Below, piece after piece: positions 4,172 through 62,722 of a stretch of 64,000 nucleotides of DNA. The notes under the pieces are model-generated. The model saw only the letters and a list, made by a program, of their open reading frames with translations, had not been told where the DNA came from and searched no databases. Position 1 is the stretch's first letter. Each line of letters begins with the position of its first letter. Both the position numbers and the translations under genes were made by a program. Origin of the DNA: Allolobophora icterica (lineage: Eukaryota > Annelida > Clitellata > Crassiclitellata > Lumbricidae); NCBI GenBank assembly GCA_963556255.1, contig OY744616.1, positions 5,001,723 through 5,065,722 on the forward strand. Direction: 5' to 3'.

Positions 4172-4207
4172 ACACCTTTAAAACGTGTCTAACTGATGCT
4201 TTACAAG
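4172..4207 (+). promoter_or_regulatory. PSE/TATA unit (degenerate TATA)
   Basis: GACACCTTTAAAACG preceded by cagcgctctgttta. The position 28 bp downstream reads TTTACAAG, a decayed TATA. Confidence 0.55.
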
Positions 4208-4322
4208 CTGCAGACGCCGCAAAATATCGGGTAAATAAGTGGGCAATACGCCCTAAGCCGGCAAGGAAGACGTCAACAGCTGTAGACGACACCAGATGTC
4301 GTTAAGCTTATGGAGAAGTTAG

Positions 4323-4358
4323 ACACCTTTTAAACGCTTTCCACTGACATTATATAAG
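4323..4358 (+). promoter_or_regulatory. PSE/TATA unit
   Basis: ACACCTTTTAAACG with TATATAAG at exactly 28 bp. A module B relic (gtcaacagc...agatgtcgttaa) lies just upstream at 4273-4306, and a module C copy follows at 4415-4530. Confidence 0.75.
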
Positions 4359-4414
4359 AGTCACGCGTGGTAAAGCTCCAGTGTCCAATTGGGAGCAGAT
4401 ATTGTTTGCATGAA

Positions 4415-4535
4415 TAGTAGGGTAACTCTGCCACTACCATGACTGTGGTAATGCCAGTCCTAAGCATGGAAAAAGGAGAAGGGCTACGCTGATCATCTTT
4501 GTTAAGACACAGTGTCGTCAAACAGCAACTCGCCA
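4415..4535 (+). repeat. Module C repeat
   Basis: ctctgccactacc...ggtaatgccagtcc, then ggagaagggctacgctgatcatc and acacagtgtcgtcaaacagcaac. Relative to the common CACTGCC/GGCAGTG hairpin this copy has CACTACC/GGTAATG, a paired change that keeps one base pair. Starts about 60 bp downstream of a TATA. Confidence 0.7.
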
Positions 4536-4798
4536 AACGACCACTATAAAGGCAAAAAAAATTCCCCGCGATGTCAACAGCCTTTGATGTGACAACATGT
4601 CATTAAACTATTGGATCCGTCACTTCCCTGTATACTTGGGTGGTGCCAGCCTGCAACCTTATCGTGTCGGATGGATCCAGAGTTTAGCGTCATCTTATGG
4701 CATCAAAACCCGTTGTCACTGGCGAGGGGTATTTTTTTTAATCCAATGTTTAATGTCATCATAATGGCATCACAGGTGACAGGTCGTTGACGACAATT

Positions 4799-5495
4799 GA
4801 AGGGCTTGCCTCAATAACCAGGTATGTCGACATACCTGGTTTATGTGAAAAAGTATGCCAGGCTGCGTGCTTGGAATATTGTATTCTAACTACCCTGCAA
4901 ATTTGGTGCATATCCGATTATTTTTGAATTGGCTTTTGGATAAACAAGTTTGTCGACATATGGTATTTAGCAGCCGGCACCATTACTCCAGTGCAATAAC
5001 CCGGTATGATAAAAAAAATTGTCGTTTTTTCTAGTAATCTTTGTATTAAAACCGGTGCAATAATCAGGTTGTTTGACATACCCGGTTATTGACTGTTACT
5101 TACTCTACAATTCACTGATTTTGCGTAATTTTTTCCTTACTGTAAAGTAGCTATGATGACTTACCTTTTTATTGCACGATTAATTTGTACTGTGTGCTAG
5201 TCACCATTTGGTGCAAGAATAAGGTATGTCGACTAACAGCAGGCGATGTTGGGTTATTGAGTGTCAATAACCAGGTATGAAGGAAAATATCGTGAAAAAA
5301 ACATTAAAGTTATCTTTTGCATTGCATTATGTAACAATTTCGTGAAAGACAATAGCAACTCAGACGGTGTTTCAAACAGATTGTCGATATCTCGTAAAAT
5401 GGCTTAGATACAACAGTTTGAAGTGTCAAATCTTTGAAGCCATTTTCCCAAAACTCAAAAAATCCGACATACCTGGTTATTGCTGCAAGCCCTTC
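4799..5495. mobile_element. Non-autonomous DNA element with AATT target duplication
   Basis: Terminal inverted repeats GAAGGGCTTGC-N2-CAATAACCAGG at 4799 and its complement ending 5495, flanked by AATT (4795-4798 and 5496-5499). A paralogous segment at 38490-38665 carries an unoccupied single AATT at 38617-38620 with matching sequence on both sides, so the boundaries are firm. Inside, the terminal motif CAATAACCAGGTATG recurs about eight times in both orientations (for example 4813, 5001, 5058, 5266 plus; 4835, 5078, 5466 minus), as in elements with many subterminal transposase sites. There is no transposase frame. A 4-bp duplication fits Sola1- or Chapaev-like groups among others; the superfamily is unassigned. 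Confidence 0.8.
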
Positions 5496-5640
5496 AATTC
5501 AATAGTATATACAATACAGTTAAAACAGAGAATTTACAGAGTTTCACAGCACTTAGAAGTGTCAAAACTGCACTCTACGATGTTTATAACAGACATTTTT
5601 AACAGCATAAATTATATATATATATATATATATATATATA
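5496..5640 (-). repeat. Segment duplicated (inverted) at 38490-38620
   Basis: Reverse complement aligns by eye with 38490-38620, sharing stretches such as gttttgacacttctaa and tactattgaattg. (TA)n marks the same end in both copies. Confidence 0.7.
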
Positions 5641-5794
5641 AACAGTTAATAATGTCAATGATATTTGTGTTATGATAAGACAGTCTTTAGTGCACATTAA
5701 ACACATTTTGCATTAATTGTTATACACAAGAATTATAATATAAAATAAATCAAATGAATGTTTGATGAACATGAGGGGTATTTGACTCGATACA

Positions 5795-5910
5795 TTATAT
5801 ATATACACACACACACACACACACACACACACACACATATATATATATATATATATATATATATATATATATGTATATATGTATATATGTATATATATAT
5901 ATATATATTC
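5795..5910. repeat. (CA)n-(TA)n compound microsatellite
   Basis: (CA)n 5802-5836 joined to (TA)n and TATG repeats to 5908. Confidence 0.9.
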
Positions 5911-6775
5911 GTTTATTCAAAAGCCAAATGACAGACCGCATTAGGGTACATATAAAAGTCAAGTAACAACAATGTCAAAGAATAATAAATTTAACAATCA
6001 AACAAAATACGAGAAATAAAATTTCTATTATCTTTAGTAGGAAGTGAAAAGTTGTGTGGTCTAGGCCTAAGATCGTATGGTATTGCAGTGTTTTTTTTGG
6101 GGGGGTGGAATAGTGAAAATAGAACATGAAAAGGTTGAGTTTAATGCACCGAAGTAGTCTTTGATTAGCTTGCTTAATAAGAATGTCAATCGATGGAAAA
6201 TCTCTGTCTAGGAAACCCAACCGCTTCATTTTACGAATTAGGCGATCAATCTTAGCTCGATCAGCAGACGAGGTGAACCTCAACTAAGCCGGGGCGGCAT
6301 ACAAAAGTCTAGCAACAGTAGTAGCTCTAGCAACTTCATGTAAGGAAGCATTAGATAAGCCATGAAGTCTAAGTATTCTAAGTGCTTGTAAAGAACCAGA
6401 GTATGTACTAATGATATTATTAATATGATAAGTTGACTTTAAATCATTAGTAATATTGACACCAAGGGTAATCATAGAAGTAACTCGAGTGATATCTGGT
6501 AGAAGAGGTGGGAGAATAAAACCCGAAGAGCGACTAGTAAAAATCATTTCACAAGATTTTTTAGTATTAAGCTTAAGATTATGTTGTGATGCCCACAAAG
6601 CAACAGAATCTAGTTATTGAAGTAAAGTAGGCCTATGCCTCACTGAGGCACCAATAATGAGGTACGTATCATCAGCATATTTACTCATCAAGTTCTGAGC
6701 ATAACTAGGGTGAATATCAGAGGCTTTAACTATAAAAGCAATATAGTTAATTCCGATTAACAAATATTTAAATCT
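5910..6775 (-). pseudogene. 5'-truncated non-LTR retrotransposon (Jockey/CR1-like), RT C-terminal part
   Basis: On the minus strand the frame begins in the finger/palm region (INYIAFIVKASDIHPS) and includes the catalytic motif YADDTYLI at about 6700-6680. It continues through WASQHNLKLN, the ITLGVNIT strand and SLHEVARATTVARLLYAAPA. A stop where family members normally have Trp breaks the frame at about 6287; the C-terminal segment (FTSSADRAKIDRLIRKMKRLG) continues to about 5975. There is no endonuclease, so this is a dead 5'-truncated copy. Its C-terminus resembles the larger LINE at 51-53 kb in layout (a trait of the Jockey/CR1 group), but the two are clearly diverged. Confidence 0.8.
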
Positions 6776-6799
6776 GATTAACAAACATTTTACAGGTGT
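6764..6799 (-). promoter_or_regulatory. Weak PSE/TATA-like unit
   Basis: ACACCTGTAAAATG with TTAAATAT at 28 bp. It adjoins the LINE fragment; kept only because the spacing fits. Confidence 0.3.
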
Positions 6800-6864
6800 C
6801 GTAAAGCGTACGCATTTAGATCATTTTTAGGTCAATCGCGTTTAGTGAATTCTCTTGATACATA

Positions 6865-61449: not shown

Positions 61450-61665
61450 TTAACTGGTGAGGGGGATAGAACACTGGTTAAACTCATGGCCAGAGGAGCA
61501 TTAGATCGCGGTTCGATACTCGTAATCCCCCTCTAGGGCGGAGCCTTACGTGGCTGTCAAACCGTGTGTTTAGTTAAGATTTGATTGTACTGTCATGTTT
61601 CAATGTAATCTTACTGCGTTTGTCAGTTTGAATTAATAAAGAAGATTATTATTGTTATTAGTGTT
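61450..61665 (+). mobile_element. Possible tRNA-derived SINE (family D)
   Basis: tggttaaactcatggccaga (A-box-like) and gatcgcggttcgatactcgt (B-box-like, 61508-61518), body to aattaataaagaagattatt. Single copy in the window. Confidence 0.55.
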
Positions 61666-61684
61666 ATACAATTGGTGACGTTAA

Positions 61685-61735
61685 TACCAATGTCAACGTT
61701 CCAGCAGCCACGAGATGTCGCTAAAAATTGGAAAT
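61685..61735 (+). repeat. Module B repeat
   Basis: accaatgtcaacgttccagc, agccacgagatgtcgctaaa, aattggaa; 7 bp before a PSE. Confidence 0.7.
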
Positions 61736-61741
61736 TATTAG

Positions 61742-61777
61742 ACACCTTTAAATATATTCGTCTCCGCTACTTATAAT
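61742..61777 (+). promoter_or_regulatory. PSE/TATA unit
   Basis: ACACCTTTAAATAT, CTTATAAT at 28 bp. Confidence 0.6.
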
Positions 61778-61794
61778 GCACAATAATTTCGCGA

Positions 61795-62100
61795 TTACAT
61801 CTCTTCCTCTGCCGTCTCGTATCTTTTGTCAAACATCAAAACATTGGGCGATAACAAAACCGTTGCCAAACGCATCAATTTATATAGCGGCAGTTCGTCG
61901 ATAACAACAGTCGGGATGCCATCACTAGATGGCCAGCGTATGATCCCCCACAGGGAATTCCATGCAACGTTTGCCATTTTATAAGACTTTATACGGTTGC
62001 GTATTTCATCTTTTAAACAGAAAATTGTTCGCAAAGCCACGTTTTGCGTCCTTGATCAGGTGAGATATTGGTCTCTAGGCAATGTTTCCTCAATACGAAA
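61795..62100 (-). repeat. Duplicated segment with open frame (empty piggyBac site)
   Basis: Minus-strand frame of 81 codons (AWNSLWGIIRWPSSDGIPTV) that is broken in the 50.1-kb paralogue. Possibly an old coding remnant; family unknown. Holds the unoccupied TTAA at 62013-62016. Confidence 0.6.
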
Positions 62101-62341
62101 GCCATATAACCTTATTATTCCAAATAATATATACGGCTAATTCGCCGAAGACAGCTTGCCCACGCACCCGAAAGCGCCTTCTGATACGACTTCTGGTAAG
62201 GGAAAGTTTGAAATGCGCGTATTTCATTCGGCGAGATTGCAGCTAATGGCTGCGAGATGGATTTGTCCCGAATATGGAGCGGAAAGTATTGGTGAACGAT
62301 AAATGCACCCAAAGGTGTTGTTAGAAAACCTAAACAGTTAG

Positions 62342-62377
62342 ACACCTTTAGAACGTATTCAAGTGAGCATATATAAA
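62342..62377 (+). promoter_or_regulatory. PSE/TATA unit
   Basis: ACACCTTTAGAACG, TATATAAA at 28 bp. Confidence 0.8.
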
Positions 62378-62615
62378 AGTATCACCAGCGCTGTAAAATG
62401 TAGAAGAGTGCGCAAAGCCCGACGGGTGGCATCCATATTGATTAATGGGATTTTTAATCTAAGCTTACTTAATTCAATCAAATCCTGTCGAATTCAATTC
62501 ATTTCAATTTAGATACAAACCAATCTCAATCAATCTAAATCATTTAAATCATTTTTAAACCGCCGAAAAGACTGTGGAACACAGTAACCGATTAGTTATA
62601 ACGCTGTCTTTATTG

Positions 62616-62651
62616 ACACCTTTAAAACGCAACGGAAAGTTAGTATAGGCA
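62616..62651 (+). promoter_or_regulatory. PSE/TATA unit with A-box-like head
   Basis: ACACCTTTAAAACG, TATAGGCA at 28 bp; upstream cagtaaccgattagttataa, cgctgtcttt. Confidence 0.7.
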
Positions 62652-62687
62652 TAAAATACTGAACCATTGTTGGAGCGCTCTCTTTGG

Positions 62688-62722
62688 ACACCTTTTAAAG
62701 TAGTAAATTGTTTCTATATAGA
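62688..62722 (+). promoter_or_regulatory. PSE/TATA unit
   Basis: ACACCTTTTAAAGT, TATATAGA at 27 bp, then tatggg; upstream ggagcgctctctttgg. In tandem, 72 bp from the previous unit. Confidence 0.8.

What the first reader, a model, noticed from the sequence alone, without database searches (positions are those of the whole stretch)
4172..62722. About 55 dispersed snRNA-type promoter units (PSE plus TATA at a fixed 28 bp) on both strands
The box GACACCTTTAAAACG recurs about 55 times (about 36 plus, 19 minus by hand). In roughly 40 copies a TATA-like octamer starts exactly 28 bp after the first A of ACACC; most others are off by 1 bp. The 14-bp spacer varies in sequence (a weak gtcaaccgatg core) while its length is kept. 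Constant spacing with free spacer sequence is the hallmark of PSE/TATA promoters of snRNA type in animals. Such a density, about one per 1.2 kb, without recognisable snRNA genes downstream, matches no described arrangement I can name for this kind of genome. The closest analogy is nematode piRNA loci driven by a PSE-like motif and SNPC-4. Hypothesis: a large cluster of independently transcribed small RNAs.
Basis: partly seen in the sequence, partly recalled or inferred. Interest (0 to 1): 0.95.

Follow-up and report, generated by a model that had tools for sequence, protein, structure and literature searches.

The report
Chromosome-end clusters of mini snRNA promoters
Near the contig ends of this unnamed, animal-like genome lie large clusters of tiny promoters of the kind that drive spliceosomal RNA genes, mostly followed by unrelated sequences, an arrangement that resembles the small-RNA loci of nematode worms and could be an unrecognised source of small RNAs.

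Summary
A box matrix finds 47-49 sites in the window (0.8 expected); 35 of 49 have a TATA-like octamer at the exact offset. The whole genome (1.118 Gb, unnamed) then answered. The exact box occurs 3,526 times (reversed control 4). With any 4-34 bp gap to TATATAAG allowed, 88 of the first 100 places listed use 14 bp (94 counting TATATATAAG), and 98 of 100 lie within 10 Mb of a contig end. Boxes, hairpins and twister elements crowd sampled blocks and are nearly absent from control stretches.

The box resembles the species' own PSE. All 12 U1 upstreams read have one NACC core, at -55 to -57; in the units it falls at -56/-57 of the start predicted from TATA. U6 genes put it at -62 with TATA at -30. 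In 60 further sites conservation is significant to TATA+32, about the predicted start; beyond it loci look unrelated apart from isolated positions.

So the promoter reading is well supported. That each unit makes its own short RNA is the best explanation but untested (no RNA data). A co-oriented covarying hairpin and P1-less twister ribozymes accompany many units. Closest analogue: nematode piRNA loci, which lack the TATA. Rivals: retrozyme-like elements, or inert repeats.

The parts
4168..4207 (+). PSE box + N14 + TATA module
4153..4192 (-). matrix hit, palindromic shadow of 4171+ (no TATA)
4319..4358 (+). PSE box + N14 + TATA module; hairpin just upstream, twister and hairpin downstream
6764..6803 (-). 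box, poor TATA
8757..8796 (+). module, first of tandem pair
8834..8873 (+). module, second of tandem pair
9482..9521 (-). module, second of tandem pair
9558..9597 (-). module, first of tandem pair
11885..11924 (-). module, second of tandem pair
11968..12007 (-). module, first of tandem pair
12818..12857 (-). module (TATA at -1)
16975..17014 (+). box, no good TATA
17888..17927 (+). module (TATA at -1), hairpin just upstream
19720..19759 (+). module, hairpin on both sides
20469..20508 (-). module, twister and hairpin downstream
20534..20573 (-). module, first of tandem pair
21209..21248 (-). module
21628..21667 (+). module
22516..22555 (-). module, hairpin just upstream
23106..23145 (+). module
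24388..24427 (+). module, twister and hairpin downstream
25021..25060 (+). module
33661..33700 (+). module, first of tandem pair
33741..33780 (+). module, second of tandem pair, hairpin downstream
34643..34682 (-). module, hairpin downstream
34799..34838 (-). module, second of tandem pair
34874..34913 (-). module, first of tandem pair
36413..36452 (+). module (TATA at -1), first of tandem pair
36488..36527 (+). module, second of tandem pair
38989..39028 (+). module, hairpin just upstream
39353..39392 (+). box, poor TATA
41406..41445 (+). module, duplicate of 58191-, twister downstream
41733..41772 (-). module (TATA at -1)
43720..43759 (-). module, hairpin downstream
45161..45200 (-). module
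45832..45871 (-). module
46144..46183 (+). module; alignment to the 47460 copy ends at TATA+33
47457..47496 (+). module; alignment to the 46147 copy ends at TATA+32
48341..48380 (+). module (TATA at -1)
48562..48601 (+). weak module
50389..50428 (-). box, weak TATA-like
53215..53254 (+). box with TATA at +2, hairpin just upstream
57517..57556 (+). module, twister and hairpin downstream
58155..58194 (-). module, hairpin upstream, twister downstream
60923..60962 (+). box, TATA-like at -2
61738..61777 (+). box, TATA-like at -2, hairpin just upstream
62338..62377 (+). module
62612..62651 (+). box, weak TATA at -2, first of tandem pair
62684..62723 (+). module (TATA at -1), second of tandem pair
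26369..26403 (+). variant box (ATACCTCTTTTAG) with TATAAG at offset 28
26712..26746 (+). variant box CACACCTCTTTTAA with TATAAG at offset 27
27769..27803 (+). variant box CACACCTCTTTTAA with TATAAG at offset 29
28429..28463 (+). variant box CACACCTCTTTTAA with TATAAG at offset 28
45265..45299 (-). variant box CACACCTCTTTTAA with TATAAG at offset 27
4432..4524 (+). twister core + 3' hairpin
10064..10153 (-). twister core + hairpin
16773..16851 (+). twister-like element + hairpin
17271..17361 (+). twister + hairpin, (ACT)n follows
20355..20432 (-). twister-like + hairpin
21357..21451 (+). twister-like + hairpin
22595..22677 (-). twister-like + hairpin
24474..24557 (+). twister + hairpin
24679..24759 (+). 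twister-like
25747..25807 (-). twister-like
28598..28684 (-). best twister match (RF03160, 43.4 bits, P1 not formed) + hairpin
32612..32695 (+). twister + hairpin, (ACT)n follows
38782..38875 (+). twister-like + hairpin
40704..40775 (-). twister-like
41548..41600 (+). twister
42609..42662 (+). twister-like
42980..43046 (-). twister-like
45397..45485 (+). twister + hairpin
56683..56775 (+). twister-like + hairpin
57584..57675 (+). twister + hairpin
57864..57943 (+). twister-like + hairpin
57964..58047 (-). twister-like + hairpin
4266..4306 (+). hairpin element 16 bp upstream of box 4322+
11791..11831 (-). hairpin element downstream of box 11921-
12726..12766 (-). hairpin element downstream of box 12854-
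17833..17873 (+). hairpin element upstream of box 17891+
19656..19696 (+). hairpin element upstream of box 19723+
19830..19870 (+). hairpin element downstream of box 19723+
33823..33863 (+). hairpin element downstream of boxes 33664+/33744+
38925..38965 (+). hairpin element upstream of box 38992+
43651..43691 (-). hairpin element downstream of box 43756-
53162..53202 (+). hairpin element upstream of box 53218+
58217..58257 (-). hairpin element upstream of box 58191-
61685..61725 (+). hairpin element upstream of box 61741+

Best explanation
The window is part of a multi-megabase block near a contig end that is rich in autonomous mini-promoters of snRNA type. Each unit has a PSE like that of the species' own U1 genes and at about the same position (NACC core at -56/-57), a TATA box at about -29, and a conserved zone that ends near the predicted start. 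Downstream, most loci have their own sequence. SNAPc plus TBP would recruit a polymerase (Pol II or III, undecided) and each unit would make its own short RNA. Many units run head to tail with a conserved co-oriented hairpin, and some with a P1-less twister, which may help form RNA 3' ends. Working model: a very large set of independently transcribed, locus-unique small RNAs, organised like nematode type-1 piRNA loci. Shown: the geometry, the likeness to U1 and U6 promoters, the clustering, the end of average conservation, the co-orientation of the hairpin. Inferred: transcription, factor binding, RNA class, roles of hairpin and twister.
For: Box 47 against 0.8 by chance; exact TATA offset 35 of 49, 54 of 78 outside the window, 88 of 100 listed places with any gap of 4-34 allowed. 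TATA positions kept AT-rich, p 5e-8 and 2e-15. U1: 12 of 12 upstreams with a single NACC at -55 to -57, TATA in 1 of 12; U6: NACC -62 and TATA -30 in 9 of 9 distinct upstreams. Sixty further sites on five contigs (of the 100 places): bias after the TATA significant to +32, then only at positions 54 and 69 up to +71, or 49 and 54 when the 10 with a second box are left out. Nine of 72 well-aligned promoter pairs, from unrelated groups, stop at +30 to +35 although their upstream homology runs to -59 or beyond in most of the cases read. 3,526 exact boxes (control 4); 98 of 100 listed places within 10 Mb of a contig end, 22 expected. Two-kb stretches at fixed round coordinates: boxes in 11 of 15 inside the C1 (1.5-5.5 Mb) and C19 (3-6 Mb) blocks and in 0 of 5 outside (C19 borders drawn after the fact). 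Hairpin co-orientation in the window: 10 against 1.8 upstream and 12 against 3.0 downstream, 0 of 626 shifts as high, opposite strand 0 and 0; repeated elsewhere, 23 against 5.5 and 22 against 8.9, opposite 0 and 1.
Against: No RNA, CAGE or ChIP data. The units combine a U1-type PSE position with a U6-type TATA; nematode piRNA promoters lack TATA (PMC6436959, passage), so the analogy is incomplete. Many copies look decayed (4 of 49 have no TATA). Most aligned pairs do not stop at the start site: of 72, 38 end at +5 to +25 and 18 run past +40, and of 10 pairs read closely 3 match again downstream. The YRNT initiator at TATA+28 (21 of 60, background 5.1) is not unique: it is as frequent at +17 and +24 inside the conserved zone. 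No T-run terminator enrichment. The distance from predicted start to hairpin end is broad, 47-271 nt in the 19 of 49 units that have one in the range searched. The box matrix itself scores U1 PSEs low (best 4.7 bits): mainly the ACACCTT half is shared, and only in 6 of 12.
Confidence: 0.58

Rival explanations
1. Ribozyme-bearing retroelements: box and TATA are the promoter carried by short, partly tandem, twister- and hairpin-bearing non-autonomous elements (like newt satellite 2 or the Pr77 head of trypanosomatid retroposons) that have piled up near chromosome ends. The promoter is real, but it serves the element, not a host small-RNA system.
For: Twister cores (10 Rfam matches with E up to 3, best 2.9e-6), shared covarying hairpin, (ACT)n arrays behind two twister copies, box pairs 60-100 bp apart 8 against 1.4, in-register matches of 90 bp or more for 18 of 49 boxes. 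For 15 box-linked hairpins, direct repeats of 8 bp or more in a wide window are 7 against 2.6, though several are pieces of the repeated module itself. Precedents: newt satellite 2 has an snRNA-type promoter (PMC2220036, passage); Pr77 is bound by TBP and SNAP50 (PMC8190864, passages) and holds a ribozyme (PMC4035085, abstract).
Against: Candidate target-site duplications of standalone hairpins are no more frequent than in controls (5 of 44 against 4.0). Box, hairpin and twister are nearly absent from 85 kb of control sequence (2, 1, 1) against 77, 118, 44 in 128.8 kb sampled in the blocks (11 of those 27 stretches were chosen for holding a box), unlike ordinary dispersed retroelements. Many boxes have no hairpin or twister nearby.
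Confidence: 0.24
2. Inert relics: the blocks are chromosome-end heterochromatin full of old duplicated repeats that once held snRNA-type promoters; the units are now silent.
For: Wide sequence decay, tandem array at C1:1.54 Mb, contig-end location.
Against: Spacer length held although spacer identity is only 0.46; AT-preserving TATA changes; 3,526 exact boxes.
Confidence: 0.13
3. The box is a conserved central domain of SINEs and its PSE/TATA look is coincidence.
For: tRNA-like segments upstream of a subset (read by eye), modular order.
Against: U1 core at the same distance from +1 in 12 of 12 genes read; TATA AT-bias; clustering at contig ends.
Confidence: 0.05

Closest known systems
Nematode type-1 (Ruby motif) piRNA loci
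   Same: Thousands of autonomous short loci in multi-Mb clusters; upstream motif derived from the snRNA PSE (PMC6436959, passages); own sequence after a fixed start.
   Different: Here a TATA box is present and the motif is a PSE at the U1 distance; ends of several contigs are involved; hairpin and twister elements accompany units; no RNA evidence. The U6 5' stem-loop read is not nematode-like (recalled comparison).
snRNA promoters (U1, U6) of the same genome
   Same: ACC core (ACACCTT in 6 of 12 U1); distance to +1 as in U1; TATA at -29/-30 as in U6.
   Different: 3' half of the box is TTTAAAACG rather than, for example, TTTATTTG (U1) or TTCTTTTCTG (U6); a TATA is missing in 11 of 12 U1; U6 has its core 5-6 bp further upstream.
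Newt satellite 2 and animal retrozymes
   Same: Self-cleaving ribozyme with an snRNA-type promoter (newt; PMC2220036 passage), small non-coding repeats.
   Different: Hammerhead not twister; 150-450 bp tandem repeats (PMC7229834, passage); a 2020 review (PMC7761336, passage) says retrozymes seem to lack promoters.
Pr77 head of trypanosomatid LINE/SINE elements
   Same: Promoter bound by TBP and SNAP50 combined with a ribozyme.
   Different: HDV-like ribozyme, 77-nt promoter at the element's 5' end, protist retroposons.
Type-P1 twister ribozyme RF03160
   Same: Core AAC..CGCC..GCC.GUCCCAAGCC.GG.UAAAGG.GGAGGG present in the best copy.
   Different: P1 stem not formed there; scores below Rfam's gathering score (43.4 against 67.2).

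Membership tests
snRNA-type (PSE/TATA) promoters | Same PSE as the species' own snRNA genes at a fixed distance from +1 | tested here: met
   12 of 12 U1 upstreams with NACC at -55 to -57, units -56/-57; but ACACCTT in only 6 of 12, the 3' half differs and the box matrix scores U1 low
snRNA-type (PSE/TATA) promoters | TATA at a fixed spacing | tested here: met
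snRNA-type (PSE/TATA) promoters | SNAPc binding and transcription from +1 | not testable with these tools
   no functional data
Nematode-type piRNA loci | Clusters of PSE-derived motifs | tested here: met
Nematode-type piRNA loci | Unique sequence after the start | tested here: inconclusive
   average conservation ends there in 60 sites, but 18 of 72 aligned pairs run past +40
Nematode-type piRNA loci | YRNT initiator | tested here: inconclusive
   enriched at +28 but also at other offsets of the conserved zone
Nematode-type piRNA loci | No TATA box | tested here: not met
   TATA in most units; hence not filed as a member
Nematode-type piRNA loci | PIWI-bound 21-nt RNAs | not testable with these tools
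   no RNA data
Type-P1 twister | Conserved core | tested here: met
Type-P1 twister | Closed P1 stem and gathering score | tested here: not met
SINE or retrozyme | Flanking target-site duplications | tested here: not met
   standalone hairpins 5 of 44 against 4.0 expected; box-linked ones 7 of 15 against 2.6 in a wide window, partly module pieces
SINE or retrozyme | Genome-wide dispersal | tested here: not met
   cluster against control stretches; the genome-wide hairpin and twister searches did not complete

The most novel reading that the evidence does not exclude
An animal that is probably not a nematode (judged from its U6 stem-loop, recalled) has independently turned its snRNA promoter into a mass small-RNA system: perhaps tens of thousands (extrapolated: 3,526 exact boxes times about 12 matrix hits per exact box in the window) of autonomous PSE+TATA mini-genes at chromosome ends, each making a locus-unique short RNA, with a shared 3' hairpin and in part a twister ribozyme forming 3' ends.
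Probability: 0.36. Interest if true: 0.97.

Novelty: new variant of a known kind. Interest (0 to 1): 0.9.

Why it matters
In the papers seen here, autonomous small-RNA loci driven by snRNA-type promoters are described only in nematodes. A second origin in a 1.1-Gb genome, with the parental U1 and U6 promoters readable in the same assembly, would make the evolution of piRNA-type promoters directly testable and would show a new way to encode very many unique RNAs. The twister and hairpin partners offer a testable 3'-end mechanism. Even on the rival reading it would be a ribozyme-bearing element family with a SNAPc-type promoter, concentrated at chromosome ends.

Tried and rejected
Until my leading reading was a dispersed SINE- or retrozyme-like family. 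It was weakened by target-site-duplication counts of standalone hairpins at control level and by concentration in contig-end blocks. The hairpin as a LINE 3' end: the intact LINE at 53437-56550 ends about 80 bp before the twister element (read by eye). Pol III terminators: no TTTT enrichment. RNAalifold predicts no consensus pair for the hairpin, although the named structure is supported by pair counts (76.2% paired against 66.8 in shuffles; covariation 0.412 against 0.255, slid versions at most 0.193; but pairs with a change on both sides, 8 against 7.1, and pair types, 22 against 20.2, are not above shuffles); much of the signal separates two subfamilies. A TSS motif from the window alone was not convincing. 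Strand runs are not significant once tandem pairs are collapsed. IMG/VR scans found nothing; GTDB contigs gave 4 hits in prokaryote records, taken as chance. Text search for the element strings: 0 papers. Nothing on twister plus an snRNA-type promoter stood out in the listings. Genome-wide placement of hairpin and twister was asked for but did not complete.

Full report
OBSERVATION. The box is real and far above chance. With up to 2 mismatches there are 37 copies (21 plus, 16 minus); a box matrix gives 47 against 0.8 in Markov sequences or, with the matrix used later, 49 (29 plus, 20 minus). At the fixed offset 35 of 49 carry a TATA-like octamer, against 2.2% of all positions (the TATA matrix was trained on 37 of these sites); 6 more are off by one. 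The spacer keeps its length while mean pairwise identity is 0.46; identity to the leave-one-out consensus is 0.62 in the spacer, 0.78 in the TATA and 0.30 beyond +45. Departures at TATA positions swap A for T more often than elsewhere (79:45 against 872:1390), as a TATA box under selection would. A variant box, ACCTCTTTTAA with up to one mismatch, occurs 9 times; 5 have TATAAG at offset 27-29, among them all 4 that read CACACCTCTTTTAA. Tandem pairs 60-100 bp apart are in excess (8 against 1.4).

COMPANION ELEMENTS. Two more repeated elements were found by eye and by profile search. One is a hairpin, CGACGTC-AACGGCCTTTGTTGCCATAA-GATGTCG followed by TTAAAC, whose stems covary by most but not all measures. 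The other carries the same hairpin behind a core that Rfam scores as type-P1 twister (10 matches with E up to 3, best 43.4 bits, all below the gathering score of 67.2); in the best copy the core residues are intact but P1 is not formed. Hairpins lie in the same orientation as boxes, just upstream (10 against 1.8 expected) and 60-200 bp downstream (12 against 3.0), and never on the opposite strand in those two intervals.

WHOLE GENOME. The genome search answered. The window is C19:5001723-5065722 of a 1.118-Gb unnamed assembly whose large contigs look chromosome-sized (the longest seen is 104 Mb). That it is an animal, and not a nematode, is my judgement from its repeats and its U6 stem-loop, not a tool result. 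The exact box occurs 3,526 times, the reversed control 4 times. Allowing any gap of 4-34 to TATATAAG gives 303 places (control 1), and 88 of the first 100 listed have a 14-nt gap; 6 more are TATATATAAG starting at 14. These 100 cover contigs 1 to 6 in order, with none on contig 3. Of them, 98 lie within 10 Mb of a contig end, where 22 would be expected.

CLUSTER AND CONTROL STRETCHES. Eleven 10-kb stretches chosen for holding an exact box, plus sixteen 2-kb stretches at round coordinates, hold 77 boxes, 118 hairpins and 44 twisters in 128.8 kb; nine control stretches hold 2, 1 and 1 in 85 kb (four further 2-kb stretches, in neither group, hold none). Among the 2-kb stretches, 11 of 15 inside the C1 1.5-5.5 Mb and C19 3-6 Mb blocks have boxes, 0 of 5 outside (C19 borders drawn after seeing the result). 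Hairpin co-orientation is repeated there: 23 of 77 against 5.5 upstream, 22 against 8.9 downstream. So these are not ordinary genome-wide SINEs.

COMPARISON WITH THE SPECIES' OWN snRNA GENES. U6 (14 matches, 10 over the cut-off): 9 of 9 distinct upstreams have TATA at -30 and NACC at -62. U1 (30 matches, 25 over the cut-off): 12 upstream stretches were read. All 12 hold exactly one [ACT]ACC between -75 and -39, at -55 to -57, as ACACCTT in 6, for example GACACCTTTATTTGTTG in L065; only 1 of 12 has a TATA. Several of these U1 copies are related, so 12 is not 12 independent cases. In the units the same core lies at -56 or -57 from the start implied by the TATA (TATA+29 or, by the U6 rule, +30). 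The box is therefore most simply the species' PSE in its U1 position, with a TATA added. The match is in the 5' half; the 3' half differs and the box matrix scores U1 sites low.

WHERE CONSERVATION ENDS. Of 72 well-aligned promoter pairs, 9 stop at TATA+30 to +35, with 3 and 1 in the neighbouring bins, in unrelated groups (C1:1.54 Mb, 46147/47460 of the window, L015/L035, L016, L010), although their upstream homology mostly runs to -59 or beyond; 38 stop earlier, at +5 to +25, and 18 run past +40. Of 10 pairs read closely, 7 have no further match downstream and 3 do. A fresh test on 60 sites from five contigs, chosen from the list, shows the consensus GATGGGACACGATA.GCGATTRRTTA after the TATA, significant to +32, then nothing to +71 except positions 54 and 69; without the 10 that have a second box, positions 49 and 54 remain marginal. 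A YRNT initiator at +28 is frequent (21 of 60 against 5.1) but equally so at +17 and +24, so it is suggestive only.

HOW IT MOST LIKELY WORKS. Established by sequence: a PSE-like core in U1 position, TATA, an end of average conservation at the predicted start, clustering, a co-oriented hairpin. Inferred: SNAPc and TBP bind, a polymerase starts at about box+58, and each locus yields its own RNA, in 19 of 49 window units followed by a hairpin within 271 nt of the start. A twister between the unique part and the hairpin could release a defined 3' end. Which polymerase is open: the PSE position is that of U1, the TATA that of U6, and there is no T-run enrichment.

COMPARISON WITH THE KNOWN. Nematode piRNA loci share the PSE-derived motif and the clusters, but lack a TATA according to the passage read in PMC6436959, so membership is not claimed. 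Newt satellite 2 (snRNA-type promoter; PMC2220036, passage; original paper not held) and the Pr77 head of trypanosomatid retroposons (PMC8190864, passages; PMC4035085, abstract) show that ribozymes and snRNA-type promoters can travel together, which keeps the element rival alive. Truncated twisters at the 5' ends of RTE retrotransposons are mentioned as unpublished in PMC7761336 (passage).

VERDICT. That the product is a class of small RNAs is the most economical explanation but needs RNA data.

Noticed in passing
53437-56550 +: Intact 1037-aa endonuclease+RT ORF of an L2/CR1-like LINE (clade by eye), 3' end near 56605 with an (AATG)n tail; it seems inserted between box 53218+ and the twister/hairpin at 56683+.
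   Followed up: partly
51025-52887 +: Second LINE RT ORF of 620 aa.
   Followed up: no
12543-12709 -, 38218-38390 +: tRNA-like SINE segments (A-box-like string) close behind hairpin-tail-like sequence; the same D-arm-like string GATTGGTTAGAGCGCTC, or near forms of it, precedes many boxes. Read by eye.
   Followed up: partly
L007 3893-9210 (C1:1.54 Mb): Tandem array of alternating unit types about 130-160 bp apart in part of the stretch, less decayed than the window; one type carries a TTTGAGAAGG-like motif downstream.
   Followed up: partly
23261-23481: 37-bp minisatellite AATTAGCTACTGAAATTTGCTAATCGATTAG.
   Followed up: no
4800-5480: CAGGTATGTCGACATACCTG palindrome near one end and an inverted copy of the outer part at the other end of a stretch of about 680 bp, possibly a small DNA element. 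Read by eye.
   Followed up: no
14913-15306: 187-bp tandem repeat inside a LINE fragment, between copies of GGGGTCCG(A/G)(C/T)CGGACCCC (and by eye).
   Followed up: no
G000 contig 3: No box+TATATAAG place on contig 3 in the contig-ordered list of the first 100, while contigs 2, 4, 5 and 6 have 26, 22, 14 and at least 33.
   Followed up: no
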